This document shows, piece after piece, positions 197 to 43,128 of a DNA stretch of 43,128 bases (position 1 is its first letter; the number at the start of each line of letters is the position of its first letter). Source of the DNA: a virus; the IMG/VR virus record IMGVR_UViG_3300047994_000120, positions 1 through 43,128 of that record; one strand, 5' to 3'. Under the pieces are notes generated by a model. It ran no database searches and was not told where the DNA came from. It was given only the letters and a program-made list of their open reading frames with translations. The position numbers and the translations under genes are program-made.

Positions 197-3169
197 TTAC
201 TGGACGGTTTGATGGGGGCCATCGCCACCGCCCGGCTCACCGGGAGAACCACCTCCTGCAGTGCCGCCGCCGCCCGATCCACCTGATCCGGTGTCGCCCG
301 ATCCGCCAGATCCACTACCGCCAGATCCACCCGATCCAGAGCCTCCAGATCCGCTGGTGCCTGAGCCGCTTGTGCCCAGCCACGGCGACGTAGGATTCGC
401 GCTGACAGGGGTGCCTCCCAGAGCTGCGGTTGCCGTGTCGCAAAGCAGCCCAAAAACACCCGACGATCCGTACCAGATATTGCCCTCGCCGTCCTCGAAG
501 CTGCAGTAGGAATTGTCGCCGTCGACAAAGCATTGTTTGACGCCATGCGCGGGGTGGCCACCGCCGTTGAGCTGGAAGCCGTTTGGTCCCGTCATGACCT
601 CCAGCGTCGCCGAGGGCATGCCTGCGAGAACCGGAATCTGACCGAGGTTCGCACCCGTTTCCGGCACCGGATAGAGGGTGATGTTTGTGGGCTGAACACG
701 GAACAGGCCAGGGTTCTGCTCAGCGCGGGCATCCCAGATCGAGAAGCCTCCGATCGCGAGCGTTTGGCCGTTCGGCAGAGGGCAATAAAACCAGCCGTTC
801 GGCATGACATTCCACGTCGCCATATTGTTCTGGAACGCGAAGATCATCGTCTGTGCTGAGCCTGGCCACTGATTTCCGTTGTCGTCGTTCAGAAGGAACA
901 AAACCGTGCCGTCCGCCTGGACGAATGCACCCACACCTTGCGTCGGCGAGCCGACCTCATAAGACTGTTTCGGGAACGCCAGCGCGACGGCCGTTGCGCC
1001 GGTGTAACCAGCCGGCAGCGGTGCAGGAGGATAGTTCGGGCCGCCACCGATCACGACACCGCCAAGACCCTTGCCAAAGATGATCTTTTCGCCGCCTAAC
1101 AACGTCAGCTCGACAAACTGGAAGGGTGTTGGATTCGCACCCGACGAAGTGACCGTCGATACAGTTGCAGAGTTCTTTGTGCGCCAGGCGATCGCGCACC
1201 AGTTCACGTCGCCAACCCACTCGGTGCCGGAACCATCGTTGTAGATCATCGCGAGTTTGCGGGTAGCGTAGGCGTCACAGTCGGTGACGTAGTGGAGGTG
1301 GGCCTGGCCGTCGACGAAGCCCTGGGGTGATGCCCAGCAGATCATGTTCGCCTGGCTAAAGCCCGAGGGCATTTGGAAGGATTCACTGTCGGCATTCGTA
1401 CCTGTGAAGAAGATGGCTTCGCCATCTGCAAGCGGAATTATGGTTCCAGTCGTTCCACCTGGAAGCAAAGGAACGTCCGGCCAGCCAGGCTCAGCGAACG
1501 GCACGTCGTCAGGATAGTTCGCATCGCTGTAAGGGCGCAGCGAAAGCTCCACGCTGCCGGCGACAGGAGTTCGATCACCGGAGACTCCAGAGCTGTCAAG
1601 CAGCGTGATCGGCGTCTTCATCACTTCGTACAGACCCGCATACGTGGTGGTGAGTGTGTCGTCGATAGCGACGATGTCACCAGGCTCGATCAGGATCGCC
1701 AGCGCGCCCGATCCATCTACGTCTTCTGCGAAGAGCGGAGCCTTTAAGGTCGCTGCAATCGGACTTATATACGGCTGCACATCCGGTCCCAATGCTACGG
1801 CACGTTGCCAGTTGCTTACCCTCGCCACTTGATCCCAGGTCGAGTTCGCGAAGTCCGTAGGAGAGAGCACACGGTTGCGCTGGCGCGGGATGCCGATTCC
1901 GACAGCACCTTTTGCAAGCTGATGGGCCTTGTGCTGGAACTGTGGAGAGCGAGCTTTGAAGCGGCTGTAGCGGAAGCCGATGAGCCCACCGACAGAGCCC
2001 ACGGCAGCGGGATAGTTGCTGCCCCGCGACTTCAGCGTCATCTGGTACACGTTGCCCAGGCCATCCGGAGCAGGCACGCTGTCCACTTGCCAATAGGTGT
2101 CGTACTTCGTGCCGGTTTTACCGATCAGAACGTAGTCTCCACCCGTCGCGCAGTGGGGTGCCACCGTTGTGACTACAGGCGCGGCGAGATCAGGAGCGTT
2201 GATGGAAGCGATCGTCGCGAAAGCTGGAGCGAGAAGGTCCTTGAAGTTCGAAACGTAGGTGTTGGGCGCGGCCTTCAGATCGGCATCGGTATGCGTGAAC
2301 GAGTCCGAGTTCTGCCGGCTGAAATGGAAGACGCTGGCGCGAGGCCGATCCGCGACGATGGAGAACTTTCCGGAACGTTCGCGTTGATAGCTCCGGCAGT
2401 TGGTCAGGAGCTGAGTGACACAGGCCTGCAGCGTGGTCTGCTGGGTGAAAGAAACATCGCTCGTAAACCGAGGGCGGCCGGTCGACGGAAGGATCTCGTC
2501 GAAGTAGGCGGCTGAATCAGCGAGTGCCGACCAGTCGAACCTCGCCTTCACGGCGGCCGGTAGATCCTGCGCTCCAGCGATGGAGTCGATCAGGTACTCG
2601 GGAAAGAGCTTGCGACGGCATAACAGATCAACGTACTGCCAGACGGCGTTGCGACTAAAGGCATAGCCCGTCATATTGCCGCTGTCATCGAACAAGCGGC
2701 AGCGCGTCGTGCGCCAGAGACCGATCGGATTGATATCGGCCCACACCGTGGAGTCGTTCTGATTCTGGTTGGGCGGGTTATTGATGAGCTGCTTCAGCTG
2801 GATCGCATAGTAGGCCCAGCGGTTGTAGTGAAGCACCTGCTGGCCGGAGAGGAGGTTGAGCCAGAAAGCATCCACGCCCTGGTCATTGCCGGTCGAGACC
2901 GGTACCTGGCCTGAGCCAACGACGGAGTCGCAGCCCGGATGGAAGTGGAGCTGGGTCAGGTTATCGTTTTCGTTCTGGTACAGAAGACGGCCGAGGCCGG
3001 TGTCCCACATCTCATCCAGGCCGTCCCACTCACCTTCAGCCAGCAGCCAGAAGCCAATGCGCGTGAAGTCGAGGTTATCGTTGCCCGTGTCTTCAAGCAT
3101 GCGGCTCTGAATCTTCTGTCCGGTTGCCCAGGCCAAGCCATAAGAGAGTGGTGCCACTGAGTTCGCCAT
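197..3169 (-). CDS. Tail tip / receptor-binding protein with Gly-Ser-rich C-terminus
   Basis: This is a 990-residue protein, the last gene of the late operon and directly downstream of two tail-tip genes (TAG stop then ATG, no gap). The N-terminal ~450 residues look like a tail hub or tip scaffold. The middle is beta-rich with repeated Gly/Pro/aromatic blocks, and the final ~60 residues are almost pure Gly, Ser and Thr. Its position after the tape measure, distal-tail-like and Cys-rich tip proteins is where siphophages place the central fibre or receptor-binding protein. I do not recognise a named family across its whole length. The tail-tip role is inferred from position and size; the low-complexity end is seen directly and could be a flexible tether. 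Confidence 0.75.
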   Translation of the reverse strand: MANSVAPLSYGLAWATGQKIQSRMLEDTGNDNLDFTRIGFWLLAEGEWDGLDEMWDTGLGRLLYQNENDNLTQLHFHPGCDSVVGSGQVPVSTGNDQGVDAFWLNLLSGQQVLHYNRWAYYAIQLKQLINNPPNQNQNDSTVWADINPIGLWRTTRCRLFDDSGNMTGYAFSRNAVWQYVDLLCRRKLFPEYLIDSIAGAQDLPAAVKARFDWSALADSAAYFDEILPSTGRPRFTSDVSFTQQTTLQACVTQLLTNCRSYQRERSGKFSIVADRPRASVFHFSRQNSDSFTHTDADLKAAPNTYVSNFKDLLAPAFATIASINAPDLAAPVVTTVAPHCATGGDYVLIGKTGTKYDTYWQVDSVPAPDGLGNVYQMTLKSRGSNYPAAVGSVGGLIGFRYSRFKARSPQFQHKAHQLAKGAVGIGIPRQRNRVLSPTDFANSTWDQVARVSNWQRAVALGPDVQPYISPIAATLKAPLFAEDVDGSGALAILIEPGDIVAIDDTLTTTYAGLYEVMKTPITLLDSSGVSGDRTPVAGSVELSLRPYSDANYPDDVPFAEPGWPDVPLLPGGTTGTIIPLADGEAIFFTGTNADSESFQMPSGFSQANMICWASPQGFVDGQAHLHYVTDCDAYATRKLAMIYNDGSGTEWVGDVNWCAIAWRTKNSATVSTVTSSGANPTPFQFVELTLLGGEKIIFGKGLGGVVIGGGPNYPPAPLPAGYTGATAVALAFPKQSYEVGSPTQGVGAFVQADGTVLFLLNDDNGNQWPGSAQTMIFAFQNNMATWNVMPNGWFYCPLPNGQTLAIGGFSIWDARAEQNPGLFRVQPTNITLYPVPETGANLGQIPVLAGMPSATLEVMTGPNGFQLNGGGHPAHGVKQCFVDGDNSYCSFEDGEGNIWYGSSGVFGLLCDTATAALGGTPVSANPTSPWLGTSGSGTSGSGGSGSGGSGGSGSGGSGDTGSGGSGGGGTAGGGSPGEPGGGDGPHQTVQ

Positions 3170-22636: not shown

Positions 22637-23146
22637 TTACTTGCCCCAGCCGACCAGCAGGCCAATGACCGGCTGGTAGCCAGAGCCCGAGTTGACGGAC
22701 GACTTGAGCACTCGCGCCGTAGGCATCAGGTACCATGCACCGCCGTCCTTACTGGTTCGGAATTTGAAAGGGACTCCCACGCCGGTCGAACAGGCCCAGC
22801 CCGTATTCGTTCCGGTGTAGGAGATGCCCGCCGCAGTTGGCACAAAGATCGAGAAGCCGTCGATCGTGGCTACTCGCTGGGCGATGCCGATGGCGACGTT
22901 CGTCGTCACAGTGAAAGGCTTGGTCGTTGCCGGCAACGCGTCGATCATCGTGAAGGCGTAGGTGCCCGAGGCGTTGACCTGCTTGGCGTACAGCGCCGAA
23001 CCAGCGAAGGCCGGGCTCGCACCCGCACTATAGGAAGCGCCGCCGAGGTAGAGGTTCGAGACGTCCTGAGCGGCCGCATACTGGGGGCCGCAACTGGAAG
23101 CGAGGGCTGCGATGAAGAGCAGCGAAATACGGAGTAGACGGTGCAT
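22637..23146 (-). CDS. Exported protein, candidate lipoprotein or spanin partner
   Basis: A 169-residue protein whose ATG at 23146 follows GGAGGTACC exactly. The N-terminus (MHRLLRISLLFIAALASSC) is a signal peptide. The Cys after LASS may be a lipobox (weak, Ala-Ser-Ser-Cys), or cleavage may follow AAA before Gln. The rest is Ser/Gly/Thr-rich beta sequence ending PVIGLLVGWGK. It lies in the lysis module, where an outer-membrane spanin lipoprotein would be expected, but 169 beta-rich residues is not a typical o-spanin. It resembles the exported fibre-like proteins at 38951-42748 in composition. Confidence 0.65.
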   Translation of the reverse strand: MHRLLRISLLFIAALASSCGPQYAAAQDVSNLYLGGASYSAGASPAFAGSALYAKQVNASGTYAFTMIDALPATTKPFTVTTNVAIGIAQRVATIDGFSIFVPTAAGISYTGTNTGWACSTGVGVPFKFRTSKDGGAWYLMPTARVLKSSVNSGSGYQPVIGLLVGWGK

Positions 23147-27168: not shown

Positions 27169-27653
27169 GCAATTCATCGCACCCCCACTCTCGCAGTACG
27201 GCCCACCGCCCGTCATCGGCTAATTTGCCGTTCCAGATTTCCGGTACGACGGTAACTTCCAGGGCTGGGGTCGACGCGCAGGGCTCTTATGACGACTCAA
27301 CAGTAATCAGAGAGTTACTTGTTCGCAGCATCAAGAAGAGCGGTCTAAGCCGCCTATCCATTGCAGAACGAATGACTTACCTGTTGGGACGCTCGGTAAC
27401 GGAAAAGATGCTGAACGCGTTTACCGCAGAGAGCCGCGATGACCGCCGCTGGCCCGCAGAATTCGACCGCGCCTTCTGCGAAGCCACCGGAGACAACTCT
27501 TTACTCCTCGACCGTGCCCGCCGCGCCGGCCTCATCGTCATCGACGAGGAGCAGTTGAAGCTACTGGAGATCGGCCGAGCCTACGTCGAGCGCCAGCGCG
27601 CTGTTGCAGAGTTTGATCGCCTCGAACGCGAAATGAATGGAGGTGGCAAATGA
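27165..27653 (+). CDS. Pre-transposase regulatory protein
   Basis: A 162-residue protein overlapped at both ends by its neighbours (ATGA junctions). After a Ser/Thr-rich N-terminus (1-45), residues 48-110 contain RELLVRSIKKSGLSRLSIAE and RSVTEKMLNAFT, an HTH-like helical core, then RWPAEFDRAFCEATGD and a C-terminal helical coil. I recall proteins of this form just before MuA-type transposases in other transposable phages. The function is not established; DNA binding or transposase partnering is likely. Confidence 0.6.
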   Translation: MSNSSHPHSRSTAHRPSSANLPFQISGTTVTSRAGVDAQGSYDDSTVIRELLVRSIKKSGLSRLSIAERMTYLLGRSVTEKMLNAFTAESRDDRRWPAEFDRAFCEATGDNSLLLDRARRAGLIVIDEEQLKLLEIGRAYVERQRAVAEFDRLEREMNGGGK

Positions 27654-29839
27654 GCGCCGCCCCAGCACTCGTCGTAAAGCAGAACTGGCCGAACACGGCC
27701 CACATCGGGCCACCTGCCCCGGAGCAGTGGATTAGCCGTGAGCGCTTCCTCTCCCTAGCCGACCGCACCCGCCAGTGGCTTTATATCGAAGAGACGGCGG
27801 GGCGCATCCTTAGCCGCGACACCTCTGACAAATTGTCGAACGGCCGCTTCGCCCGCGAGTATGCCGTGTCTTCTCTCCCCGCCCAGGCCCGGCAGCGATA
27901 CGAGGCGGAGCAGTCCAAGCTCCCCGTCGCCATCCAGCCATCACTCCCATTCTTCGGCACACCCCGGCTGGTGAAGGAAGCCCCCCGCGTTCGCCTTCAC
28001 CCGGCGAAGTCTACCGAGGCCGAGCGCAAGCAGCAGGTATTGGAGCCCATCCTCGCGATGCGCAACGAACATGCCCGCCGGATCTACGCGCTCATCTACA
28101 AGCTCATCGACGGCACACCCGTCGACAGCCAGAACCGGATGATCCAGTACCAAGTCGAGAAGTATGGCCTGCAGGGCGAAGAGTTGAGCACCCGCACCAT
28201 CAAGCGCTGGATCGCAGCCCACGACAAAGAAGGCATCGCCGGTCTCGCTCGCCGCCAGCGCAAGGACGCCGGCAGCAGCCAGTACTTCACCAAACCGGAG
28301 AACCTTCGCGCCGCCTGGCTGGTGGCCTACCTTCACCTGGGCGACGGCATGACGCCCGGCCTGAGCGTTCAGGCCTGCTATGACATGCTCACCGTGCAGC
28401 GCGGCCTGGTCGGGCTGGAAGAGGCCGACCTGCCGCACTACAACACCGTGCGCAACTTCCTCGCCGCAATCACTCCGGCGCTGAAGGTCTACGCCACGCG
28501 CGGCCGCAAGGAATACGCCGAGCGCATGTTGCCGTATCTCAGCCGTGCCCACTCCGAGCCGGCGAACTCCATCTGGGTGTCGGACACGATGGTCTCGGAT
28601 GTGGAAGTCCTCAACGATATCTACTCTGGCACGAAGCTGGGAGCGCCCGTCCGTCTCCGCCTGACGGCCATCATCGACTACCGCAGCCGCTACCTGGTCG
28701 GCTACAGCTGGGCCTGGGAAGGTTCCAGTCAGAGCATCGCGTCCGCTCTGCGTATGGCGATCAGCCACCACGGCCCCTGCGAGCTGTTCTACGTCGACAA
28801 CGGCAAGGACTTCGTCAAGGTCGCCGCAGGCGCTCTGCCTGGCTACGTCCAGCCCGGCGACATCGAGGGTTGGTTCGCCAGCGAGATGCGTCGGATCGAC
28901 CAGACCGGCATCCTCGCCCGTCTCGGGATACGCGTCACGCATTGCATCCCGCACCACCCGCAGTCGAAGCACATCGAGCGCTTCTTCCGCACTCTCCACC
29001 TCACGTTCTGCAAGTACTGGCACACCTACACCGGGGGCAAGCCCAGCGAGCGCCCGGACAACACCGCGGCGCTCATGATGCACCACCGCAGGATGCTGGC
29101 GGCCGGAACCATCGAGAAGTCGCACCATCCGCTTGCCAGTGATTTCATCCGCACGTTCGAAGCCTGGGTGGAGAAGTATCACGCTCATCGCGGCCATCGC
29201 GGCCAGGGCATGAACTTCCGCTCCCCAGCCGAGGTCTTTGACCAGGAGCGCAACCCGAAGCAGAAGCCGAAACCGGATGCCGAGGCTCTCGCCTGGCTGC
29301 TCTGGGATCATAAGCGCCCCGTGGTGCATGAGTGCCAGGTGCGTGTGAACAACCACGACTACGCCCCGGTGAACGAAGTCCAGGCCCAGCGGATGTTCGA
29401 GCTCAACGAGCAGAAGGTCACCGTCGCCTTCGATCCGCTCGACCCTTCGATGGTCGCTGTGCTCGACGAGGACAACCGCCTCATCACGACGCTCGAAGCC
29501 AAGCGCCTGGTGCGGATGGCTCCGGACGATCCCGAGACCCAGCGCCAGATCGCCGCGATATCCCAGATGCGCGGCTCGCTCACCAGGACTGTCCGCGAGC
29601 AGCGCACCTCGCTGATTCGCACCGGCAAGGAGATCGGCGTCCTCCACCCGATCAAGCTGCTCGCCAGTTCCGCCGAGGCCGGCATGACGCTGCCCTCCAC
29701 CATCGACATCGCCGATGCCGCCGCCAGCCGGATCACACCGCGCAAGCCCCGGCCAGAGGACGAAGAACAACGGGCCCCTATGTACGCCAACGATCTCGGC
29801 GCAAAGATGTTCCGCCGCCTGCAGGAGAGGAAAAAGTAA
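27650..29839 (+). CDS. MuA-like DDE transposase
   Basis: A 729-residue transposase. The N-terminal Mu-type DNA-binding domain (WISRERFLSLADRTRQWLYI… SLPAQARQRYEAEQ) is followed by helical DNA-binding domains and the RNase H-like core: Asp312 (SIWVSDTM), Asp383 (FYVDNGKDF) and Glu443 (HPQSKHIERFF). The C-terminal part has a Mu_transpos_C-like beta barrel and a basic tail. It cuts and joins phage ends to target DNA, both at integration and in replicative transposition. It ends TAATG into MuB. Unlike Mu, the gene lies about 27.6 kb from the left end of the window. Confidence 0.97.
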   Translation: MSAAPALVVKQNWPNTAHIGPPAPEQWISRERFLSLADRTRQWLYIEETAGRILSRDTSDKLSNGRFAREYAVSSLPAQARQRYEAEQSKLPVAIQPSLPFFGTPRLVKEAPRVRLHPAKSTEAERKQQVLEPILAMRNEHARRIYALIYKLIDGTPVDSQNRMIQYQVEKYGLQGEELSTRTIKRWIAAHDKEGIAGLARRQRKDAGSSQYFTKPENLRAAWLVAYLHLGDGMTPGLSVQACYDMLTVQRGLVGLEEADLPHYNTVRNFLAAITPALKVYATRGRKEYAERMLPYLSRAHSEPANSIWVSDTMVSDVEVLNDIYSGTKLGAPVRLRLTAIIDYRSRYLVGYSWAWEGSSQSIASALRMAISHHGPCELFYVDNGKDFVKVAAGALPGYVQPGDIEGWFASEMRRIDQTGILARLGIRVTHCIPHHPQSKHIERFFRTLHLTFCKYWHTYTGGKPSERPDNTAALMMHHRRMLAAGTIEKSHHPLASDFIRTFEAWVEKYHAHRGHRGQGMNFRSPAEVFDQERNPKQKPKPDAEALAWLLWDHKRPVVHECQVRVNNHDYAPVNEVQAQRMFELNEQKVTVAFDPLDPSMVAVLDEDNRLITTLEAKRLVRMAPDDPETQRQIAAISQMRGSLTRTVREQRTSLIRTGKEIGVLHPIKLLASSAEAGMTLPSTIDIADAAASRITPRKPRPEDEEQRAPMYANDLGAKMFRRLQERKK

Positions 29840-31412: not shown

Positions 31413-31451
31413 CCTCCACGCCCCACCAACCCAGAAGGAGCCGTATCGACC

Positions 31452-32401: not shown

Positions 32402-32460
32402 TCCTCGCCACTAACAATCCCGCCGCCGAGCTCCAGGAGCTGCAGGCCGGCATGCTTCGT

Positions 32461-32709: not shown

Positions 32710-32747
32710 GCCAGCATCCTACCCGACCCGCCTGTGGAGGCGCTCCG

Positions 32748-34331: not shown

Positions 34332-34633
34332 GCAAGACAATTTATCTTGTAACGCGCACTACCGGAGAGTACGAAAGTCGGGACACCGTGAACCTGGTTG
34401 CGTTCACCGTGGAGCAGGAAGCGGCCGATAGAGTGGCGGCCATCCAGAGTTGGTTTTCAGCGCACCCGCGCCCCAGCTTCGATGAAGTATGGGATGAGGA
34501 GGCATGTGAGATCACTGGCGAGAAGATGAAGGATTTTATTTGCCCGCTTGATCCCGATCACTTCAACGCCGACAGATTCGAAGAGCCTCGGTACGGCTAT
34601 CACTCTGTCGAGCTCATAGAGGAGGCGCGATGA
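34328..34633 (+). CDS. Early hypothetical protein
   Basis: A 101-residue acidic protein overlapping the nuclease gene by ATGA. It starts with a beta strand (TIYLVTRTTGEYES), followed by a helix (EQEAADRVAAIQSWF) and acidic loops. No motif recognised. Small size and position suggest a host-takeover or accessory function, but nothing in the sequence shows it. Confidence 0.5.
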   Translation: MSKTIYLVTRTTGEYESRDTVNLVAFTVEQEAADRVAAIQSWFSAHPRPSFDEVWDEEACEITGEKMKDFICPLDPDHFNADRFEEPRYGYHSVELIEEAR

Positions 34634-34812
34634 GGGTCATCAGGCCAGGAGTACTCCCCGACACCAAGGAATACTACGGCCATTGCGTCTACTGCCATTG
34701 TGCCTTCACCTTCATGCGGGGGGAGGCGAAGTTCGAGTCCACCTGCCGCAATGAGGACTACCTCAAGATCGCCTGCCCCACCTGCAAGCGGGAAGTGTGG
34801 GTGCGGCTGTGA
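34630..34812 (+). CDS. Small zinc-ribbon protein
   Basis: A 60-residue protein with CVYCHC near the middle and CPTCK near the end, the CxxC…CxxC pattern of a rubredoxin-like or zinc-ribbon fold. It overlaps both neighbours by four bases. Small zinc ribbons in phage early operons often bind host RNA polymerase or nucleic acid; which applies here is unknown. Confidence 0.6.
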   Translation: MRVIRPGVLPDTKEYYGHCVYCHCAFTFMRGEAKFESTCRNEDYLKIACPTCKREVWVRL

Positions 34813-35099
34813 TTCTGCCCGGCTATATCGGCCCTCTCGAAAAGTGGCAGGTCGAGCTGCGCAAGGCCTCGAAGAGCGGCATCCTTGAGCGCCTTGAATG
34901 GCTCATCTTCGTGTTCAACATCACGCCCGAGAAATGCCTTGCGATAGCTAAGGAGGCGAAGAAAGAGGGCCGCTGGATCGACCATCACAATGCCCACCTG
35001 AAGTTCATGCAAAACCCCAGCGCCGCTCTTGAGGCATCGGTCAAACGTTCAAAGGCGGCCAAAAAAGCCGCCCGCAAAAGAAAGAAGGCCACACGATGA
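34809..35099 (+). CDS. Early basic hypothetical protein
   Basis: A 96-residue protein starting at a GTG that overlaps the previous stop (GTGA); a GTG at 34797 would add four residues. The body is helical (LEKWQVELRKASKSGILERL) and the C-terminus is strongly basic (SKAAKKAARKRKKATR), typical of nucleic-acid binding. No family recognised. Confidence 0.5.
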   Translation: MILPGYIGPLEKWQVELRKASKSGILERLEWLIFVFNITPEKCLAIAKEAKKEGRWIDHHNAHLKFMQNPSAALEASVKRSKAAKKAARKRKKATR

Positions 35100-35419
35100 C
35101 GAATCCCAGAGAACTCCACGAAAGACCCGCCGCGGACGAGGCTGCAAAAACCGAGGACTCAAAGTACCCACTAAACCACTACGTCCGTCCGCTCAAGCAA
35201 ATCACGATTCGTATCTTCCGCCCTGGCGGCAAGAAGTCGAAGACACATCTATACCGCGCGCCCAACGGCAAGGCATTCACCGAGACCGGCCTTGCGAGCT
35301 TGTTGGAGCAGACCATCACCAACATCGAGACGCATCTGCCCGATGAAGACTACGCCATGCGTCAGGTCGGGCGCGGAGCCTTCAACTTTGTGTGGATGGG
35401 GAAGAAGGAGGCAGCCTAA
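35096..35419 (+). CDS. Early hypothetical protein
   Basis: A 107-residue protein overlapping the previous gene by ATGA and the next by TAATG. The middle (QITIRIFRPGGKKSKTHLYR) is a basic beta hairpin region, followed by a helix (TGLASLLEQTITNIE) and a terminal strand. It could be a small nucleic-acid-binding protein. Unrecognised. Confidence 0.5.
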   Translation: MTNPRELHERPAADEAAKTEDSKYPLNHYVRPLKQITIRIFRPGGKKSKTHLYRAPNGKAFTETGLASLLEQTITNIETHLPDEDYAMRQVGRGAFNFVWMGKKEAA

Positions 35420-35856
35420 TGGGATTCTCACTTCCACGCGACCGCTACGAGATGAAGCGCGCCGGATACACCTTCCAGAAGCTCTCGACCTGCAAAGGCT
35501 GCAAAGCCACGATCGAGATATGGAAGACGACGAGGGGCAAGACGATGCCCTTCGATCCGCCATCCGCGCCTGGCCAGGACCGCGAAGACGCCGTAGTTCA
35601 CTACGACTCCTGCACGACAAATCCGCGCAATAAGAAGGCCGCCCAGACCCCGGCCAGCGGTGCACCGAAGATGAGCGACCTGAAGCGCCACACCATCGCC
35701 TTCGCCGAAGCCAACAATGCCCGCGCCGTCCTGGTGCTCTGCGATGGTGAGCTGCACTCCTGGGCTCTGCGCGACGGAGAGAACGCCGAGGATCTCCGCA
35801 GCGACCTCATCACCCTCGCCAACATGGCCAAGCGCCAGACGGAGGCAACACGATGA
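35419..35856 (+). CDS. Early two-part protein with Cys motif
   Basis: A 145-residue protein from the TAATG junction. The N-terminal part has CKGCKATIEIWKT, MPFDP and YDSC. This Cys set with 'mPfdp' is common in small phage proteins that bind zinc. The C-terminal part (HTIAFAEANNARAVLVLC… ENAEDLRSDLITLANMAK) is a small alpha/beta domain. Function unknown. Confidence 0.55.
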   Translation: MGFSLPRDRYEMKRAGYTFQKLSTCKGCKATIEIWKTTRGKTMPFDPPSAPGQDREDAVVHYDSCTTNPRNKKAAQTPASGAPKMSDLKRHTIAFAEANNARAVLVLCDGELHSWALRDGENAEDLRSDLITLANMAKRQTEATR

Positions 35857-36401
35857 ATGCGTCTACGCTCGATCCGTCCATCCTTCCCATCTCCATCGAT
35901 CGCGAGACACCCCACGGCGATCCGCGCCTCTCCAACCCCTTCGAAGACTTCGAGACGATCTACCCCGCGCCGGTCGTAAAGGCGTTCGTCATCACCGAAG
36001 AGATGCGCCAGCGAGATGCCGTCGAGCAGCGCGAGAAGGAGATCAAGCGCCAGGCGTCGATCACCTGGACGCCGCCCTTTCCGCGTCGCGTCGTCGAGCA
36101 GGTAGCATCCGCGCCCTACATCCTCGCCCCAGGCCGTGGACCCAAGCAGCGCGTCATCCGCACCCTGAAGTTCTGCGAGGCGGGTTGCGGTGCCGAGGTG
36201 ATGCAGAACACGAAAACCGGCATTTGCCGGGCCTGCTATATGAAGCGCGGCAGCGCGGTTCTCCCGAAGGAGATGTGCAGCGCGGGTTGCGGTAAGCCAT
36301 TGACTCGCCGATCGAGTACCGGCAAGTGCAGAGGTTGCGCTCTCAAGGGCAATCCCCAGCGCCATAAGTTTCGCCACCGCGTAACTGGGAAGAAGGCTTA
36401 G
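35853..36401 (+). CDS. Early protein with tandem zinc-finger repeats
   Basis: A 182-residue protein overlapping its neighbour by ATGA. After ~100 residues of Pro-rich and charged sequence, the C-terminal half carries two similar Cys modules: CEAGCGAEV…TGICRAC and CSAGCGKPL…TGKCRGC. The shared C-x3-C…TGxCRxC spacing points to an internal duplication. The protein ends in a basic tail (RHKFRHRVTGKKA), so nucleic-acid binding is likely. Confidence 0.6.
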   Translation: MNASTLDPSILPISIDRETPHGDPRLSNPFEDFETIYPAPVVKAFVITEEMRQRDAVEQREKEIKRQASITWTPPFPRRVVEQVASAPYILAPGRGPKQRVIRTLKFCEAGCGAEVMQNTKTGICRACYMKRGSAVLPKEMCSAGCGKPLTRRSSTGKCRGCALKGNPQRHKFRHRVTGKKA

Positions 36402-36405
36402 CGAC

Positions 36406-36825
36406 ATGAGCCCACGCACCCGCAAGCCACCTGATCCGCGCCACGCTGAAGTGGTGGCCGTCCTTCGGCAGTACTGGGAGGTCGAGCGTAACGAGCTCGT
36501 GCCCGACCTGCCATGGACCGCCGCCGACGCCGGCGCGCTCGGGCAGTTCTTGCGGGGCAATCCCACCCTCACCGTCGACCAGGTGAAGGAGCTCCTCCGC
36601 AACCGGCTCAAGAGCGACGATCACGCCCGAGGCGAACCGATCTTCGTCTGGATCAAGTACCTCACCCGATACGCGGCAGGCCCGCTCGACAAGTACAAGC
36701 AACCGAAGCTCACGACAGAAAGGAGAACCGATGGAAAACCGAATCGCACGGATGAACGGAACGAACAAGCTGCAGACGCTACCCGCGCGGCGCTCGACAG
36801 AATACGCGCTGTGGCTGGCCGTTGA
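36406..36825 (+). CDS. Early hypothetical protein, possible replication accessory
   Basis: A 139-residue protein. The helical body (VVAVLRQYWEVERNELVPDL… LTVDQVKELLRNRLKSDDH… WIKYLTRYAAGPLDKY) resembles small helical replication or loader-associated proteins of phages. The last 31 codons overlap the next gene, which starts inside it at 36731. The two share 95 bases in different frames. Confidence 0.55.
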   Translation: MSPRTRKPPDPRHAEVVAVLRQYWEVERNELVPDLPWTAADAGALGQFLRGNPTLTVDQVKELLRNRLKSDDHARGEPIFVWIKYLTRYAAGPLDKYKQPKLTTERRTDGKPNRTDERNEQAADATRAALDRIRAVAGR

Positions 36826-37381
36826 GATCGGCAACCTGGCGATCTACCTTGGCCAGCAGAATCAGCTCGACTCCCTCGGCTATCGTCAGGCGCAGATGGC
36901 AGACGACATGGTCGACACCAACCCCGTGGCGATGTATCTCGCCTTCGGCCATCTACGCCGCACCTGCAAGTTTCTGCCCACCACCGGAGAGATCCTCGAA
37001 GTCTATGCGCCGATCGCCAAGCGCCTTCGCGATGAGGCCGAGACAGCCCAGCGCATCGCCGACGAGCAGGCCATGAAGGCCCAGCGCGAAGCGCATCCGC
37101 AAGACTTCATATCGGACGCCGACGTCACGGCGGACGTCGCTGCCCTCGCCGAGAAGGCCACCATTGCCCACCGCGCCCGCCACGCTGCCCAGCGGATCAC
37201 GATGCCCGCGCCCACTGTCCAGGACTGCCCACACTGCGGCAAAGCGATCCCTACCAAGGTCGCCGACCTCAGCGCCCTCAGCCCCGCCGATCTCCGCTCT
37301 ATGGCCGACCGCCGCGAGGCCAAGGCGGCCGCCGTCGCCGCCGCTGGCGCGGCAGTACTTCAAGAAAGCAGGAAAGCATGA
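36731..37381 (+). CDS. Early protein with C-terminal zinc motif
   Basis: A 216-residue protein whose ATG has AGGAG five bases upstream and lies 95 bases inside the previous gene. The N-terminal part is helical with YALWLAVEIGNLAIYLGQQN and KFLPTTGEILEVY; the 'fPt.gei' element recalls phage replication-associated proteins. The middle is a coiled, Ala/Glu-rich stretch. Near residue 165 a CPHCGKAIP half-motif is present. It overlaps the next gene by ATGA. Function unknown. Confidence 0.6.
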   Translation: MENRIARMNGTNKLQTLPARRSTEYALWLAVEIGNLAIYLGQQNQLDSLGYRQAQMADDMVDTNPVAMYLAFGHLRRTCKFLPTTGEILEVYAPIAKRLRDEAETAQRIADEQAMKAQREAHPQDFISDADVTADVAALAEKATIAHRARHAAQRITMPAPTVQDCPHCGKAIPTKVADLSALSPADLRSMADRREAKAAAVAAAGAAVLQESRKA

Positions 37382-38091
37382 GCACCATCCACGACACCGC
37401 AATCGCGCTCGCCGATCTTTGCCAGGAGAAGCACGACGCCTACGGCGACTCCATCGGCAAGTCGGCCGAGCTGCTGGCGCTGCTCTATCCCAACGGCCTC
37501 CGGCCCGATCAGTACCTCGACGCCATCATGGCGGCCCGCGACTTCGACAAGCGCGCCCGGCTCGCCCAGGGCAATGATCCCCACGGTGAGGATCCACGTC
37601 TCGACATCGCCGGTTACGCACTAAAGGCCTTGCACTACAGCAGAGAAGGAGCAACAAAGACACCATGCGGATCTGTCAGCGCGGAGGATGCGGCAAAGAA
37701 GTCACCGGCACCAAGCGATTCTGCGGAACAAAGTGCAGCACCGCTGACTACGCCGAGCGCAAGCGAGCCGCTCGAAAGGAATTCCGAGACGCTGTCGTCG
37801 CTGCCCTCGCCGAGCACCTCCGCAAAGTCGGGTGCCCTTGCCTCAACTGCGATGGCCGCTGCACTGTTCGAAAGCGCAAACGTAAAGCACAGTCGCCTAA
37901 AACTCATACGACGCCAGACCATCATTGAGGGGGGCGCAGCTCGTAACTTCGTCGGCCAATGCGCCTTCTGCGGCTGCAACCATGTACTCGATGAAATGAG
38001 ATACACGGCCCGGTTCGACACCTATACGCTCTACTTCGATTTACGTCAGTGCTTGGCGATCTTCGATGACGTATTGGAGCACAAGTCATGA
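37378..38091 (+). CDS. DUF1599-like N-terminal domain joined to C-terminal Cys domain
   Basis: A 237-residue frame in three parts. Residues 1-93 (EKHDAYGDSIGKSAELLALL… DKRARLAQ… DIAGYALKAL) resemble DUF1599/Nmad1, a MazG-like fold linked to nucleotide modification. Residues ~96-180 are a Ser/Pro/Ala-rich stretch that coincides exactly with another gene in the +2 frame (37665-37928). Residues ~182-237 (FVGQCAFCGCNHVLD… YFDLRQCLAIF) are a small Cys domain. The linker's composition looks like the by-product of overprinting. The C-terminal domain may instead be translated separately from a non-AUG start near 37924. Confidence 0.55.
   Translation: MSTIHDTAIALADLCQEKHDAYGDSIGKSAELLALLYPNGLRPDQYLDAIMAARDFDKRARLAQGNDPHGEDPRLDIAGYALKALHYSREGATKTPCGSVSAEDAAKKSPAPSDSAEQSAAPLTTPSASEPLERNSETLSSLPSPSTSAKSGALASTAMAAALFESANVKHSRLKLIRRQTIIEGGAARNFVGQCAFCGCNHVLDEMRYTARFDTYTLYFDLRQCLAIFDDVLEHKS
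37665..37928 (+). CDS. Overprinted basic zinc-finger protein
   Basis: An 87-residue frame lying wholly inside the previous gene. It is cysteine-rich and well patterned: CQRGGCGKEV…RFCGTKCS, then a basic helix (YAERKRAARKEFRDAVVAAL), then CPCLNCDGRC and a KRKRK tail. AAGGAG lies 13 bases before the ATG, longer than ideal. The regular Cys pairs and basic helices argue that this frame is real and that the frame around it is a low-complexity linker here. It probably binds nucleic acid. Confidence 0.55.
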   Translation: MRICQRGGCGKEVTGTKRFCGTKCSTADYAERKRAARKEFRDAVVAALAEHLRKVGCPCLNCDGRCTVRKRKRKAQSPKTHTTPDHH

Positions 38092-38627
38092 GGACCATCA
38101 CCCCCGCCCAGCTCGCCCGCCTCCAGACCCTCTGCTCGCAGATGACCCAGAGCGTCATCGGCTTCGACGGCGGCCGCGAAGGCCGCCTTGCCTGGGCTGG
38201 CACGTTGCTGGGCCGCACAGTGCCCACGTTCAGCGCCCTGGGCTTCCACGACGCTCGGCTGCTCATAGACGCCGCGCAGGGCGAGCTGGGCCACCGTGCG
38301 CCATTGAAGCCCGGCAGCAAGCGCAACCAGGCGCACAAGCACACCGCCGAGGACGCCCTCCGCGCGGGTGTCGATGGCCGCAAGGATGACGTCGTCTTCG
38401 TCCAGCGGCCGGAGATCGTCAGCGCCGAAGACCTGGAGACCATCGCCAGCTACTACCAGCGCCTCGGCTGGGACAAAGCCCGCTTCGATGCCTGGCTCGC
38501 CGGATCCAGCTCGCCGATCAAACCGGGCAAGGTTATCCACACCACGCGCCAGGCAAACAGAGTTCGTTGGGCACTCAAAGGCATGCTGCAGGATGCCGGC
38601 CTCTGGGTAGATTGGAGCAAGGGATGA
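38088..38627 (+). CDS. GemA/Gp16-like (DUF1018) protein
   Basis: A 179-residue protein overlapping its neighbour by ATGA. It starts ITPAQLARLQTLCSQM, as GemA-type proteins do, and its C-terminal half (GWDKARFDAWLAG… ANRVRWALKGMLQ) matches the helical pattern of that family. In Mu, GemA lies between early and middle genes and affects host gene expression and DNA topology. The position at the end of the early operon suits this. Family assignment is moderate. Confidence 0.55.
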   Translation: MRTITPAQLARLQTLCSQMTQSVIGFDGGREGRLAWAGTLLGRTVPTFSALGFHDARLLIDAAQGELGHRAPLKPGSKRNQAHKHTAEDALRAGVDGRKDDVVFVQRPEIVSAEDLETIASYYQRLGWDKARFDAWLAGSSSPIKPGKVIHTTRQANRVRWALKGMLQDAGLWVDWSKG

Positions 38628-38935
38628 AGAAGAATCTGGTCGAAACATACGCGCTCTCACCGCAGCTGCACTTCCCGTGGCATCCGGGCCGCACAACGTC
38701 CGTGTTGCGAGCCGCCGAGTTGCTCGGATGTTCGCAGTCCACCATCATCCGGCTCTGCCAGGATGGCAGCCTGGAGGCGTTCAAACGCCGCCGCAACAAC
38801 AGCCCCTACATCGTCATCTACGATAGCGTCATCCGCATCGCAGATCAGTGGCGCATCGAGAGTGGGGTCTCGTCGCCTCAAAGTACGTCAGGTGCGGCGA
38901 CTGCCGCTGCTGTGGCCAAGGAAGCCGGTCGATAA
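38624..38935 (+). CDS. MerR/excisionase-type HTH protein, candidate late regulator
   Basis: A 103-residue protein overlapping the GemA-like gene by ATGA. Residues ~27-60 (RAAELLGCSQSTIIRLCQDG, then LEAFKRRR and PYIVIYDS) are the AlpA/excisionase HTH with wing. The C-terminus is Ser/Ala-rich and disordered. It is the last early gene, the place where Mu has mor, the middle-gene activator. No Mor/C-type protein is seen elsewhere, so this is the best candidate for a switch to the late operon. Confidence 0.65.
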   Translation: MKKNLVETYALSPQLHFPWHPGRTTSVLRAAELLGCSQSTIIRLCQDGSLEAFKRRRNNSPYIVIYDSVIRIADQWRIESGVSSPQSTSGAATAAAVAKEAGR

Positions 38936-38950
38936 ACCTAAGCTGCGAGC

Positions 38951-39835
38951 ATGCGCCGCAGACTGGCTTCCTCTTTACTCGCGTCACTTATTCTCGCGTC
39001 CGCGCTGGCGACCGCTCCTGCATCCGCAATAGCGCAGTGTCCAACGAACTTCGCGAACATCACCGCAGCCCAGATCGGCGCGAACACTCCACTCCAGACC
39101 GGCAAGCTCTCGGTCACGGCCACAGACTCCAGCCATAACCCCATCAACTTCACCGTTCCGGGCAGCGGCATCGGCCTCATGCGCGCCTGGACGCGCAACG
39201 TCGTCAACGGTGCCATCACGTTGCCGCTCTGCCTCCCTCGCACCGATCGCACCTCCTCCCCTGTCGGCTATCACTTCCAGATCCGCGACACGAGTGCGGG
39301 CGGCGGCAACGCCATCGTTCTCGACCAGTACGACGTCGCCATCCTAGCCGACACCTGGTCGCTCGACACCTACAGCTTCCTGCCCCAGCGCAGCCCCTAC
39401 ACCCTCGCCGCGAACATCGCTCCATGGGCTGGCCCCATTGGGCCGCCTGGTCCCGCTGGCTCCGCCGCCGCCCTCGTCGACTCCGTCACCGGAGCGATCT
39501 ACATCATCAAGAACGGCGCTCTGGTTACCCTCGCCGGCAACGCCTCCTACCAAACCCTCGCATCGTCAGGCGGATCGCTCTTCTCTCTTCGCCTGTACGG
39601 TGCCGTTCCTACCCTCGTACCGGTCTCCTCAACAGCTCCCAACACCGTCATCCTCACCGACCAGAGCGCGGCCAGTACGTACTGGAGCGTCACTGTCGAT
39701 AACCAGGGCGGTGTGAGCCTCGCCCAGGTCTCTAGCTCCACTGGCGCTCTCGCCTCACTTCCCATCGTCGATACCGGCGATGGCGTCACCAAGCTTCTCT
39801 CGATCTCCAACGGCGCTCCAGCGCTCTCCTACTGA
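38951..39835 (+). CDS. Exported fibre-like protein with collagen-type triplets
   Basis: A 294-residue protein with a clear Sec signal (MRRRLASSLLASLILASALA… PASAIA, cut before Gln). Residues 30-155 form a beta-rich domain; about residues 161-170 contain GPIGPPGPAG, a short collagen-like triplet run, followed by a second beta domain. Collagen triplets and such domains are typical of phage tail fibres, but tail fibres do not normally carry signal peptides. No good ribosome site is seen before the ATG. It begins a cassette of four exported proteins. It could be displayed on the lysogen's surface. Confidence 0.7.
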   Translation: MRRRLASSLLASLILASALATAPASAIAQCPTNFANITAAQIGANTPLQTGKLSVTATDSSHNPINFTVPGSGIGLMRAWTRNVVNGAITLPLCLPRTDRTSSPVGYHFQIRDTSAGGGNAIVLDQYDVAILADTWSLDTYSFLPQRSPYTLAANIAPWAGPIGPPGPAGSAAALVDSVTGAIYIIKNGALVTLAGNASYQTLASSGGSLFSLRLYGAVPTLVPVSSTAPNTVILTDQSAASTYWSVTVDNQGGVSLAQVSSSTGALASLPIVDTGDGVTKLLSISNGAPALSY

Positions 39836-39855
39836 CCCTGAAAGGATCACCGTCC

Positions 39856-40614
39856 GTGCTCAAGCGCATACTGATCGCCGTCTCGCTCTCCGTTGCTTTG
39901 CTCGCCGCCGCACCCACGCCCGCCGTTTCCCAAACAAGCAGCAACGTGCCCATCGTGACTTTCCGTGGAACTTACGCTGGCTCGACCGTCTATGGCCAGG
40001 GCGTCATGGTCCTCTATCTGGGGTCGAGTTACATTAGCCTTTCCTCTTCGAACCAGGGCAATGCACCATCGACTAGCCCTACGTTCTGGCAGCTCATCAC
40101 GAGCGCAGCCAGCACAGCCACGCCAGCGGGAAATAACTACTCCCTGCAATTCAATAACGGGGGGGTTCTCGCCGGATCAACGTTCCTCGGCATCCCCGTT
40201 GTGAGCAACCTCGGCCCGCCTCGCACCGCGAATTACCAGGATATTGTCGGCTTCTTCGGCGGCGGGGCATGTTCAGGGCTGCTGTCCTCGAACGGGAGCT
40301 GCGTCAGTGCCGGAGCGACGATCGTGCCCTATAGCTGCAGCGGCGCACTCGCTCTCACGCTCACGCCAGGCGACTCCATCTTCGTCATCACTGCCACCGC
40401 GAACTGCTCCATCACCCTTGCGACCTCAGCCGTTACCAGCATCGCTCAGCGAGGCACTGTCATCATCCAGCCTGGCGGATTCACGGTGACAGTCCCCAAT
40501 TCGAGCAGCTCCCTCGCTTGGTATAGCGGAACGCCTCCGCCCATCAGCACCTCCGCCACCACGATCTTCGATCTCCTCTTCACCGGCAGCGCGCCCACTT
40601 ACGGAAGGTACTAG
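39856..40614 (+). CDS. Exported fibre-like protein with carbohydrate-binding-like domain
   Basis: A 252-residue protein starting at GTG (AAAGGA upstream). Sec signal MLKRILIAVSLSVALLAAAP… AVS, cut before Gln. Residues ~33-84 follow the chitin-binding (CBM5/12-like) pattern: TFRGTYAGSTVYGQGVMVLY, SSYISL, then FWQLI. Residues ~95-112 (GNNYSLQFNNGGVLAGS) match the 'QFNnGG.l.Gs' element common in phage tail fibres. The C-terminal part is a small beta domain. The fusion of a fibre module with a Sec signal is unusual. Confidence 0.7.
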   Translation: MLKRILIAVSLSVALLAAAPTPAVSQTSSNVPIVTFRGTYAGSTVYGQGVMVLYLGSSYISLSSSNQGNAPSTSPTFWQLITSAASTATPAGNNYSLQFNNGGVLAGSTFLGIPVVSNLGPPRTANYQDIVGFFGGGACSGLLSSNGSCVSAGATIVPYSCSGALALTLTPGDSIFVITATANCSITLATSAVTSIAQRGTVIIQPGGFTVTVPNSSSSLAWYSGTPPPISTSATTIFDLLFTGSAPTYGRY

Positions 40615-40673
40615 AACAAGTCTTCAGAGTTTTAGCCCGACCAAGCAAATCACCACATTTTCAGGAGCGCATA

Positions 40674-42455
40674 ATGCGTAAGTTTCTTATCTTCACCCTG
40701 GCTGTATTCTTCGCAGCATCGATTCCTGCGTCCGCTCAGACGGTCGCTACGGACAGCCTTGCAGGTACGGCAGGGACCACACTCGAAGCGCATACATCAG
40801 GGGGCGTCACATGGGTTCGCGCGGCGGCAAGCACCGACGAGTTGGTAATTCGCGCAGGCGGAGGGGTGCGTCAGACGGCTACAAACGGAGCTACATCCTA
40901 TGCCGCCACCTCTCCCGCAACCGCAACGGCGGACTATTACGTTACCGGCACTTTCTTGCCTCAGACTGCAGCCGCAAACAACGTCGGAGTTGGAGTACGC
41001 GTTCAGTCGAATGATGCTGATGGTTATTACGCAATCTATCAGACAGCGGCGTCTTCGCTAGGCCTCTTCAGGGTCTCGGGAAATGGTGCCACATTCACCC
41101 CTCTTGGCTCCTACACCTTCACGGAAACAGTAGGCTCTTCGATAACAATTTCGGTCGGAGCCGTTGGTACCGCGCTGACCGTCCAGTTGAATGGCAGCAC
41201 GGTTATTAGCGGTGTCAGCGACAGCACATATGCCACCGGCATTCCGGGTGTGAATATGTACTCGTCGGGTGACACCGACTCGACTGGCTGGGCTATGACC
41301 AGCTTCAGTTACACCAACGGTGCATTGCCCAACAGCGGAGGCGGTTCGTTCACACTGTCCGCAGCAGCAAACGACAGCAGTTTTCTCTATTCTCCCTGGA
41401 ATTGGGCTCAGGGAACTTATACCAGCGGCACCTACGCGGGCAAGACATATGCGGCAGCGGTGAACCCAGGCGCGTATATCCGCCAGCAGTACCAGTTCGG
41501 CACTTCCGCAGTGTTGCACTTTGATGTGACAAACCTCGGCAGCTTCAATGCGGCCGACATTCCGCACATAGCTGTTCGTGTCGACAATGGGCCATTCGTC
41601 AAGTACTCCGCCGCCACATCCGTTGACATCAGCTCGCAGTTGAATTCCAACACCTCCACCGGCCAGAACCATCTGATCGAGATCCTGTTCAACAGCGTGC
41701 AAGAAGCAACCGGGGGGCAGGAGCGATTCAACGTAGTCTCCGGAACAGGTGTCGTTGCCCCTGTCGCGTCACTGATTTTTCTCGGAACCACCTACAACAG
41801 TGGAGCTACGTGGTCCGCTCCTCCACGTCGAAAATATAACGTCCTTCTCGATGGGGACTCGATCACAGAGGGCGCAGATGCACAGGGAAATAGCACCTCC
41901 GGAAACAGCTACCCAGGCACGAACAATGATGCTTCGGCTGGGTGGGCCTTCAACTTGGCGCAAGCCTGCGATGCGGAAGTCGGCGTTGTAGGATTCTCCG
42001 GCCAGGCCGTCGCGAACACTCTCTATTACGTCCATAACGCGCTCTACACTTACGCCTCGGTCTATCAAGGGGTACCGAGGAACTTCGCCTCGCCAACACC
42101 CGATGCAGTTGGCCTCGACTGGGGAACGAACGATGGCGCTTCCGCGCAGTCGGACTTCGTGGCTGGGATTCAGACGATCCATTCCACGATCGCCACTGCA
42201 GCTCCGCATGCCAAGTTCTTCATGTGGGAGGACTATCGCGCACAGCAAACCCCAGGCGAGGTTGCTGCCATGTCTGCAATCGGGGGCAAGCTCATCACCG
42301 GCTTACTCGACGGCGGATTTATGACCAACGGTATCGCCGATAGCTATGACGGCAATCACCCGACCGCTACCACCCACGCGACCAAGATGCTCCCAGTTAT
42401 TTCGAGCGCTGTTTGCGGTCTTCTTTCCGGCTCTCGCACCCCGACATATTTCTAA
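40674..42455 (+). CDS. Exported SGNH/GDSL esterase with N-terminal beta-sandwich
   Basis: A 593-residue protein; ATG with AGGAG six bases upstream. Signal peptide MRKFLIFTLAVFFAASIPAS, cut before Gln. Residues 30-220 resemble a concanavalin/LamG-like jelly roll. Residues ~225-385 form a second beta domain like the N-terminal domain of CE2 esterases. The SGNH domain follows: block I LLDGDSITEG (Ser396), block III-like WGTNDG and block V DGNHPT (Asp559, His562). It probably removes acetyl or acyl groups from a surface or environmental polysaccharide. In a virion such enzymes help penetrate capsule; with a Sec signal it is more likely secreted by the cell. Confidence 0.85.
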   Translation: MRKFLIFTLAVFFAASIPASAQTVATDSLAGTAGTTLEAHTSGGVTWVRAAASTDELVIRAGGGVRQTATNGATSYAATSPATATADYYVTGTFLPQTAAANNVGVGVRVQSNDADGYYAIYQTAASSLGLFRVSGNGATFTPLGSYTFTETVGSSITISVGAVGTALTVQLNGSTVISGVSDSTYATGIPGVNMYSSGDTDSTGWAMTSFSYTNGALPNSGGGSFTLSAAANDSSFLYSPWNWAQGTYTSGTYAGKTYAAAVNPGAYIRQQYQFGTSAVLHFDVTNLGSFNAADIPHIAVRVDNGPFVKYSAATSVDISSQLNSNTSTGQNHLIEILFNSVQEATGGQERFNVVSGTGVVAPVASLIFLGTTYNSGATWSAPPRRKYNVLLDGDSITEGADAQGNSTSGNSYPGTNNDASAGWAFNLAQACDAEVGVVGFSGQAVANTLYYVHNALYTYASVYQGVPRNFASPTPDAVGLDWGTNDGASAQSDFVAGIQTIHSTIATAAPHAKFFMWEDYRAQQTPGEVAAMSAIGGKLITGLLDGGFMTNGIADSYDGNHPTATTHATKMLPVISSAVCGLLSGSRTPTYF

Positions 42456-42463
42456 GGAGAACC

Positions 42464-42748
42464 ATGCACGTCATCCTTCTTTTTGCAGCTTTCGCAACAG
42501 CCAAAACAAGCCTTCCGTCGACCGAGATTCGCCCCTGTAAAGTCGTCATGCCGCGGCCGAATCCGCTGTCGCCTCCACCCGCCCTCATCATCTACCGGGA
42601 CGGCACCTTTATCCGCGTCCAGAACGCCCTCGCGCCCGAGGTCGAAGCCATCGTGGACTGCTCCTCCGCCGACGCCTACCCGAACAAAAACCGCCCCGCG
42701 ACCCGACTCATCCCCGGCCGCACCCCAAAAACCTCTTCCACCCCCTAA
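42464..42748 (+). CDS. Small exported hypothetical protein
   Basis: A 94-residue protein with AAGGAGA four bases before the ATG, eight bases after the esterase stop. A short signal-like N-terminus (MHVILLFAAFATA) is followed by a Pro/Arg-rich segment, a small beta hairpin (ALIIYRDGTFIRVQN) and a Pro/Ser tail. Two cysteines could form a disulfide. Co-transcription with the esterase suggests a partner or surface role. Family not recognised. Confidence 0.55.
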   Translation: MHVILLFAAFATAKTSLPSTEIRPCKVVMPRPNPLSPPPALIIYRDGTFIRVQNALAPEVEAIVDCSSADAYPNKNRPATRLIPGRTPKTSSTP

Positions 42749-43128
42749 AACCGCCCGCCGCCGCCCACTTTACCCGGACTGCCGCCGGGCCTCAAACCCG
42801 CACCAGTGTTGGGTTTCACGCTCTTTGACAACCAGAGAAACGACCTGTCACTTTCGCCGGGTAAAGACTTTACGTGGATTCCGTCTCCGTCGTCGTCGAG
42901 TTTCGGGGAAAACTGCCACCTCTCCCATGTAAACTTTACCCGGATCGGTGCCAAATATCTCTGCCGCCTCCCACATCCATAACCGCCCGCCGACCTGCCC
43001 TAAACCCACGCCAATCCCGCTATTTCCGACCATTGCCGCTCATATCCCGCTAGTGACACTGATCTTTGTTACTCACACTCCCGTTTGAGCTACTTACACC
43101 CTCGCAGTCGCTACAATTAAATCAGCCC
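42749..43128. other. Non-coding right end and flank
   Basis: No convincing gene; short frames here have no ribosome site or family pattern. It holds the repeat group described separately, the GGTGCCAAATATCT site (42947-42960) and CCACA (42971-42975), which inverts the left TGTGG and could mark the right terminus. Sequence after 42975 is probably host DNA. No 5-bp duplication links 123-127 and 42976-42980, so the terminus is unproven. Confidence 0.4.
42767..42944. repeat. ACTTTACCCGGA repeats at the right end
   Basis: Exact 12-bp copies lie at 42767-42778 and 42933-42944. A 10-bp inverted copy (CCGGGTAAAG) lies at 42857-42866 and is followed directly by a 10/12 direct copy (42867-42878). The last exact copy is two bases from the GGTGCCAAATA site. 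None was seen at the left end. They may be accessory transposase or host-factor sites, or a host repeat. Confidence 0.6.

What the first reader, a model, noticed from the sequence alone, without database searches (positions are those of the whole stretch)
38951..42748. Cassette of four Sec-exported proteins, two built from phage-fibre modules, at the prophage right end
All four consecutive plus-strand genes start with signal peptides. The first two contain tail-fibre hallmarks (GPIGPPGPAG triplets; LQFNNGGVLAGS) and one a chitin-binding-like domain; the third is an SGNH esterase. Tail fibres are normally assembled in the cytoplasm and have no Sec signal. Either the phage exports fibre-like adhesins and an esterase from the lysogen (surface change, receptor masking, biofilm or polysaccharide use), or fibre genes have been captured as host-fitness genes. 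The set lies at the end away from the virion operon, as morons often do.
Basis: partly seen in the sequence, partly recalled or inferred. Interest (0 to 1): 0.8.

Follow-up and report, generated by a model that had tools for sequence, protein, structure and literature searches.

The report
Sec-exported phage tailspike, split into parts
This soil-bacterium virus, like its relatives, makes its tail-fibre-type proteins with an export tag and paired cysteines, so they are probably sent out of the cell's interior before or instead of joining the virus particle; textbook tailed phages are not known to do this.

Summary
p1, p2 and p3 start with strong Sec signals; p4 does not clearly. The window is a Mu-like siphophage of Terriglobia. 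In 13 of 13 relatives with a readable right end, the slot after gemA holds signal-bearing fibre-like genes, usually one 940-1309 aa modular protein. The window's p1+p2+p3 look like a split form of it (N-domain, collagen/CBM5-12 module, CE2-like esterase). Export looks real: intact signal-bearing N-domain proteins have even cysteine counts in 27 of 28 cases (controls 117 even, 92 odd), and two cysteine pairs co-occur perfectly. The same N-domain occurs without a signal, starting at its first residue, in tail operons next to tape measure or J, and also with a signal in those places. Lab-isolated Terriglobia phages (Tunturi 1, 4 and 5; Tunturi 1 without integrase) carry signals on tailspike or fibre-like genes. 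Of 74 other IMG/VR fibres, one passes. So this is not mainly a lysogen 'moron'; it is a Terriglobia-phage tailspike family that goes through Sec. Whether the exported spikes join virions at lysis (favoured) or act free as receptor-modifying enzymes is untested.

The parts
38951..39835 (+). p1: Sec signal (residues 1-28), N-domain ND (about residues 29-145), collagen-like GPIGPPGPAG linker, short fibre-like C-terminus
   Evidence: signal; ND family; homologue in G117 prophage at the same place, 28% E 2e-10, and in L355 38%
39431..39460 (+). GPIGPPGPAG collagen-like triplets in p1
39856..40614 (+). p2: Sec signal (1-25), CBM5/12-like module, LQFNNGG fibre motif, fibre-like C-terminus
   Evidence: matches the stretch after the ND inside the fused G424 protein, 25% over 235 aa E 1e-13, and L348 41%
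39973..40092 (+). CBM_5_12-like module of p2
   Evidence: Pfam E 0.029, below cut-off; phrog_9851 tail fibre E 2e-4
40674..42455 (+). p3: Sec signal (1-21), beta-rich N-terminal part, CE2-like SGNH esterase with GDSITEG (394), GTND (484), DGNHP (559)
42464..42748 (+). p4: 94 aa, unknown; short hydrophobic start, signal doubtful
   Evidence: no family
38088..38627 (+). gemA-like early gene, marker for the slot in relatives
   Evidence: conserved in 14 IMG/VR relatives and G117
38567..38935 (+). HTH/excisionase-like regulator directly upstream of p1
   Evidence: phrog_2907 E 8e-4
27650..29839 (+). Mu-type DDE transposase A: the phage is transposable
   Evidence: tblastn to transposases of Mu-like phages
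197..3169 (-). J-like central tail fibre, last gene of the virion operon
   Evidence: phrog_31 E 1.5e-11
22637..23146 (-). further signal-bearing protein in the lysis region, conserved in G117

Best explanation
The cassette is a split copy of a modular tailspike/tail-fibre gene belonging to a family found across Terriglobia phages, in which the protein is made with a cleavable Sec signal and is exported. Shown by sequence: signals, N-domain, fibre and esterase modules, cysteine pairing, conservation of the slot, and signal-less versions of the same N-domain in tail operons. Inferred: the proteins fold and form disulfides in the periplasm during the lytic cycle; when the holin opens the inner membrane, the finished spikes meet the cytoplasm-assembled virions and attach as the last assembly step, and p3 (a CE2-like O-acetyl esterase) trims acetyl groups from host surface polysaccharide. 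That tailspikes can be added last to finished particles is established for P22 from general knowledge; nothing here shows it for this phage.
For: Signals at the slot in 13 of 13 phages with a readable right end, against 8 of 325 other genes. Intact signal-bearing N-domain proteins: 27 of 28 with even cysteine counts, other phage proteins 117 even to 92 odd, Fisher p 7e-6; two cysteine pairs co-occur 18/0 and 10/0. Same N-domain without signal in tail operons (L352, L353 after tape measure; L357, L366 after J) and in the right-end slot of a related Mu-like prophage (L351); with signal in the same kinds of place (L359, L363 after tape measure; L349, L350 after J) (in L363 the N-domain call is by eye). 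The window's p2 and p3-type modules are fused to the N-domain in G424 (ND + p2-like + SGNH). G423 and G442 carry the signal-bearing gene at the left end beyond the virion operon. Tunturi 1: gp12, gp13, gp14 (tail spike) and gp17 (virion structural) have signals at the depositors' annotated starts; Tunturi 4 and 5 also have signal-bearing fibre-like genes, with four large ones in Tunturi 5. Only J is left in the window's virion operon as another fibre candidate.
Against: No proteomics; attachment to virions is not shown. No tailed phage known to me assembles exported fibres. In the window p2 and p3 lack the N-domain, so they would need another way to attach. The slot lies in the early-gene direction, not in the virion operon. 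J alone could be the receptor-binding protein. The signal test is rule-based, not SignalP. Signal-less N-domain proteins also have mostly even cysteine counts (5 of 6), so parity alone does not separate the two classes.
Confidence: 0.45

Rival explanations
1. Exported, non-virion tailspike derivatives: soluble receptor-binding or receptor-modifying proteins sent to the periplasm or surface during infection or lysogeny. They deacetylate or mask the surface polysaccharide, so that progeny are not trapped on debris and superinfection is blocked.
For: p2 and p3 carry signals but no N-domain; p3 has a complete SGNH motif set and CE2 similarity; SGNH receptor-binding proteins of temperate Klebsiella phages are active esterases (PMC13123978); phage T5 makes a receptor-blocking lipoprotein, Llp (PMC9586334, found).
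Against: The N-domain shared with signal-less tail-operon fibres is kept in most signal-bearing proteins; signal-less and signal-bearing versions occupy the same slots; Tunturi 1 shows no other obvious spike gene.
Confidence: 0.33
2. Lysogenic-conversion genes (morons): secreted adhesins and an esterase that help the lysogen on surfaces or in polysaccharide use.
For: Right-end position away from the virion operon; a conserved chromosomal locus in Terriglobia carries similar signal-bearing fibre-like proteins (72 of 379 genomes match the fibre motif, 16 of 20 examined pass the signal test); p3-like esterases occur in Terriglobia genomes.
Against: Present in all readable relatives rather than sporadic; signal-bearing homologues lie in tail operons and in Tunturi 1, which has no reported integrase; no own promoter or terminator seen.
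Confidence: 0.14
3. The hydrophobic N-termini are not export signals but start-codon artefacts or membrane anchors; the proteins are ordinary cytoplasmic fibres.
For: Signal calls are rule-based; some genes have weak ribosome sites.
Against: AxA-Q type sites recur; even cysteine counts and paired cysteines; start codons fall either 18-38 or 1-8 residues before the N-domain; depositors' starts in Tunturi 1 agree.
Confidence: 0.04

Closest known systems
Phage tailspikes and side tail fibres with collagen-like, CBM-like, SGNH or beta-helix modules (e.g. SGNH receptor-binding proteins of Klebsiella prophages; G7C gp63.1)
   Same: Modules, variable C-termini, esterase chemistry, and homologues placed next to tape measure or J
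   Different: A cleavable Sec signal and paired cysteines; 1 of 74 IMG/VR fibres with the LQAATKQYVD motif passes the signal test, with 22 even to 24 odd cysteine counts
T5 Llp and Cor-type superinfection-exclusion proteins
   Same: Phage-encoded, exported, act at the cell surface
   Different: Small receptor blockers (Llp a lipoprotein); here large modular fibre-like proteins, no lipobox in p1-p3
CE2 carbohydrate esterases (PDB 2wao)
   Same: SGNH domain with GDS, GTND and D-x-x-H motifs; similarity E 8.6e-6
   Different: Phage-encoded, in a fibre cassette; activity untested
Mu-like siphophages such as JBD30
   Same: Transposase A/B, gemA, terminase and portal relatedness, terminase about 30%
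   Different: Virion operon inverted and divergent from the early genes; fibre-like genes at the end of the early side; no N-domain in 40 control Mu-like phages

Membership tests
Tailed-phage tail fibre/tailspike | Fibre modules (collagen triplets, CBM5/12-like, LQFNNGG, SGNH, beta-helix) and fibre-family profile matches | tested here: met
Tailed-phage tail fibre/tailspike | Homologues in tail operons next to tape measure or J | tested here: met
   L352, L353, L357, L359, L363, L366, G423
Tailed-phage tail fibre/tailspike | Cytoplasmic protein without Sec signal | tested here: not met
   baseline 1 of 74
Tailed-phage tail fibre/tailspike | Present in purified virions as trimers | not testable with these tools
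   no proteomics held
Lysogenic-conversion moron | Sporadic among close relatives | tested here: not met
   13 of 13 readable right ends filled
Lysogenic-conversion moron | Own promoter and terminator | tested here: inconclusive
   none found, but the scan is a weak sigma-70 consensus scan
Lysogenic-conversion moron | Outside the virion operon | tested here: inconclusive
   true in the window, not true in several relatives
Llp/Cor-type receptor blocker | Lipoprotein signal (lipobox) on a small protein | tested here: not met
   p1-p3 have SPase I type sites; no lipobox
CE2 SGNH esterase (p3) | GDS, GxND and DxxH motifs in an SGNH domain | tested here: met
CE2 SGNH esterase (p3) | Acetyl-esterase activity | not testable with these tools

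The most novel reading that the evidence does not exclude
Terriglobia phages have moved the making of their receptor-binding spikes out of the cytoplasm: spikes are Sec-exported, folded with disulfides in the periplasm, and attach to virions only at lysis. This would be a previously unrecognised assembly route for tailed phages, with signal gain or loss at a fixed domain boundary.
Probability: 0.4. Interest if true: 0.92.

Novelty: new variant of a known kind. Interest (0 to 1): 0.8.

Why it matters
Tailed-phage fibres are taken to fold and assemble in the cytoplasm. A whole host lineage's phages, including plaque-forming isolates with cultured hosts, carrying export signals and paired cysteines on spike genes breaks that rule. 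Either a new virion assembly route or a widespread exported receptor-modifying weapon exists. It also warns that 'secreted' phage genes need not be morons or auxiliary metabolic genes, and it is testable now with Tunturi 1 and its host.

Tried and rejected
Single-protein scans of IMG/VR and GTDB contigs with the transposase, p2 and p3 found no relatives; DNA search in phages, and p1/p2 in phages and p2/p3 in plasmids, found nothing, and p3 in phages gave only two weak Streptococcus phage hits. A distant terminase alignment gave only 30% relatives; the close clade was reached through the Terriglobia prophage G117. AlphaFold2 on p1 with four sequences was poor (pLDDT 48; N-domain 60-79, all beta) and Foldseek gave nothing reliable, so no fold is claimed. 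The N-domain profile found no credible solved structure. The p3_CE2 row was translated in a wrong frame and is ignored. The idea that the signal-bearing genes are host genes picked up at random was rejected on slot conservation. The second fibre-like cluster next to the G117 prophage was first taken for another prophage; it is a recurrent chromosomal locus. Paper searches found no description of signal peptides on Acidobacteriota phage fibres, within the open-access library only.
Full report
What was checked. The window is a whole IMG/VR record of 43,128 bases. It is a Mu-like transposable siphophage: DDE transposase A at 27650-29839 and a B-type ATPase to 30828 on the plus strand; terminase, portal, capsid, tape measure and J on the minus strand running to the left end. 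The plus-strand early genes end with a gemA-like gene (38088-38627) and an HTH gene (38567-38935), and p1 starts 15 bases later. No sigma-70-like promoter or convincing terminator separates them (weak test).

Observation. p1, p2 and p3 have clear Sec signals under a rule-based test; p4 does not when read from its ribosome-site ATG. p3 matches the CE2 esterase protein 2wao and keeps GDS, GTND and DxxH motifs.

Host and relatives. A Terriglobia genome (G117) carries a prophage with nearly all the structural and core early genes of the window in the same order, at 26-66% identity, and a p1 homologue at the same place. An alignment of the two terminases found 41 IMG/VR relatives at 54-67% terminase identity. 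Fourteen have gemA and were read in full.

The slot. Beyond gemA and the HTH gene, signal-bearing fibre-like genes follow in the window, G117, G434, G430, G424, G420, G432, G426, G435, G407, G438, G415 and G444. Most are one gene of 939-1309 aa with a shared N-domain, then collagen-like or CBM5/12-like modules, then SGNH, beta-helix or other domains. The window, G435, G438, G426 and G420 have sets of two or three exported genes. G424 joins N-domain, a p2-like stretch (25% over 235 aa) and a C-terminal SGNH domain in one protein, so p1-p2-p3 is best read as a split form. Three relatives are the exceptions. The G423 contig runs straight from the HTH gene into a host gene and the last 1.9 kb of G417 show no such gene; G442's contig stops at gemA. 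G423 and G442 instead carry a signal-bearing gene at the left end, in G423 just downstream of J. G417's left end is not in the contig.

Is export real? Only 8 of 325 other genes in the clade pass the same test, several of them holin-like or in the lysis region. Intact signal-bearing N-domain proteins have an even number of cysteines in 27 of 28 cases; other proteins of these phages split 117 even to 92 odd, Fisher p 7e-6. Within the N-domain, two cysteine pairs occur together or not at all (18 both and 0 single; 10 both and 0 single), and none of the six signal-less N-domains has either pair. These are the marks of disulfides. Caution: signal-less proteins are also mostly even (5 of 6).

A natural comparison. 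The N-domain profile (A4) hits 20 of 399 Terriglobia genomes. Start codons lie either 1-8 residues before the domain, with no signal, or 18-38 residues before it, with a signal (one weak non-phage hit, L367, fits neither). Signal-less copies sit after the tape measure (L352, L353), after J (L357, L366), after J and lysis genes (L361), or in the right-end slot of a Mu-like relative (L351). Signal-bearing copies sit after the tape measure (L359; L363 by eye), after J (L349, L350) and in right-end slots (L348, L355). So the signal is gained or lost at a fixed boundary of a true tail-fibre family. The N-domain is absent from 40 control Mu-like phages.

Lab isolates. Tunturi phages infect cultured Terriglobia (PMC11924767). 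Tunturi 1, for which no integrase is reported, has signals on gp12, gp13, gp14 (annotated tail spike) and gp17 (annotated virion structural protein), all at the depositors' starts, with 20, 10, 20 and 32 cysteines in the mature proteins. Tunturi 4 has one and Tunturi 5 four such fibre-like proteins, again with even counts; Tunturi 3 shows none. These lack the N-domain, so export of spikes is not tied to one domain.

Baseline outside the lineage. Of 74 IMG/VR fibres with the LQAATKQYVD motif and a readable start, one passes the signal test, with 22 even and 24 odd cysteine counts among the rest. In Terriglobia genomes the same motif leads to a recurrent chromosomal locus of 550-3065 aa signal-bearing proteins, often beside a HipA-like kinase and a DUF3037 gene, and in G117 also a terminase-like gene.

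How it works, with steps marked. Shown: signals, modules, slot conservation, signal-less homologues in tail operons, cysteine pairing. Inferred: cleavage and periplasmic folding; timing in the lytic cycle; attachment to virions at lysis; deacetylation by p3. The main rival, a free exported receptor-modifying protein, fits p3 well, because p3 has no N-domain. The moron reading fits worst with tail-operon homologues and with Tunturi 1.

Limits. SignalP was not available. Searches of papers cover an open-access library only. Relatives are not independent samples, although the C-terminal parts are mostly unrelated in sequence. Virion content is unknown.

Noticed in passing
L214:1025-8869 (G117) and L506-L525: A recurrent chromosomal locus in Terriglobia: signal-bearing proteins of 550-3065 aa with phage-fibre motifs and even cysteine counts (19 of 20), often next to a HipA-like kinase and a DUF3037 gene, with a terminase-like gene in G117. 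72 of 379 genomes match the fibre motif; possibly a domesticated phage element.
   Followed up: partly
window 22637-23146 (-): A further signal-bearing protein in the lysis region, conserved in the G117 prophage at 39%; G434 has an N-domain protein with a signal at a similar position.
   Followed up: partly
window 137-177 and 42947-42957: Two direct copies of CAAACTTATTTGGCACCA near the left end and an inverted GGTGCCAAATA near the right end, probably transposase end sites; short host DNA may flank them.
   Followed up: partly
L351:7822-10260 (G299): A related Mu-like prophage whose right-end fibre gene has the N-domain but no signal: a ready natural control.
   Followed up: yes
window 197-26566 versus 27165-42748: The virion operon is divergent from the early operon, unlike classic Mu order, and this layout is shared by the clade.
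   Followed up: partly
L382 and L373 (Tunturi 5 and Tunturi 3): p2-like stretches occur in these isolates as well (25-41% identity); the encoding genes were not examined one by one.
   Followed up: no
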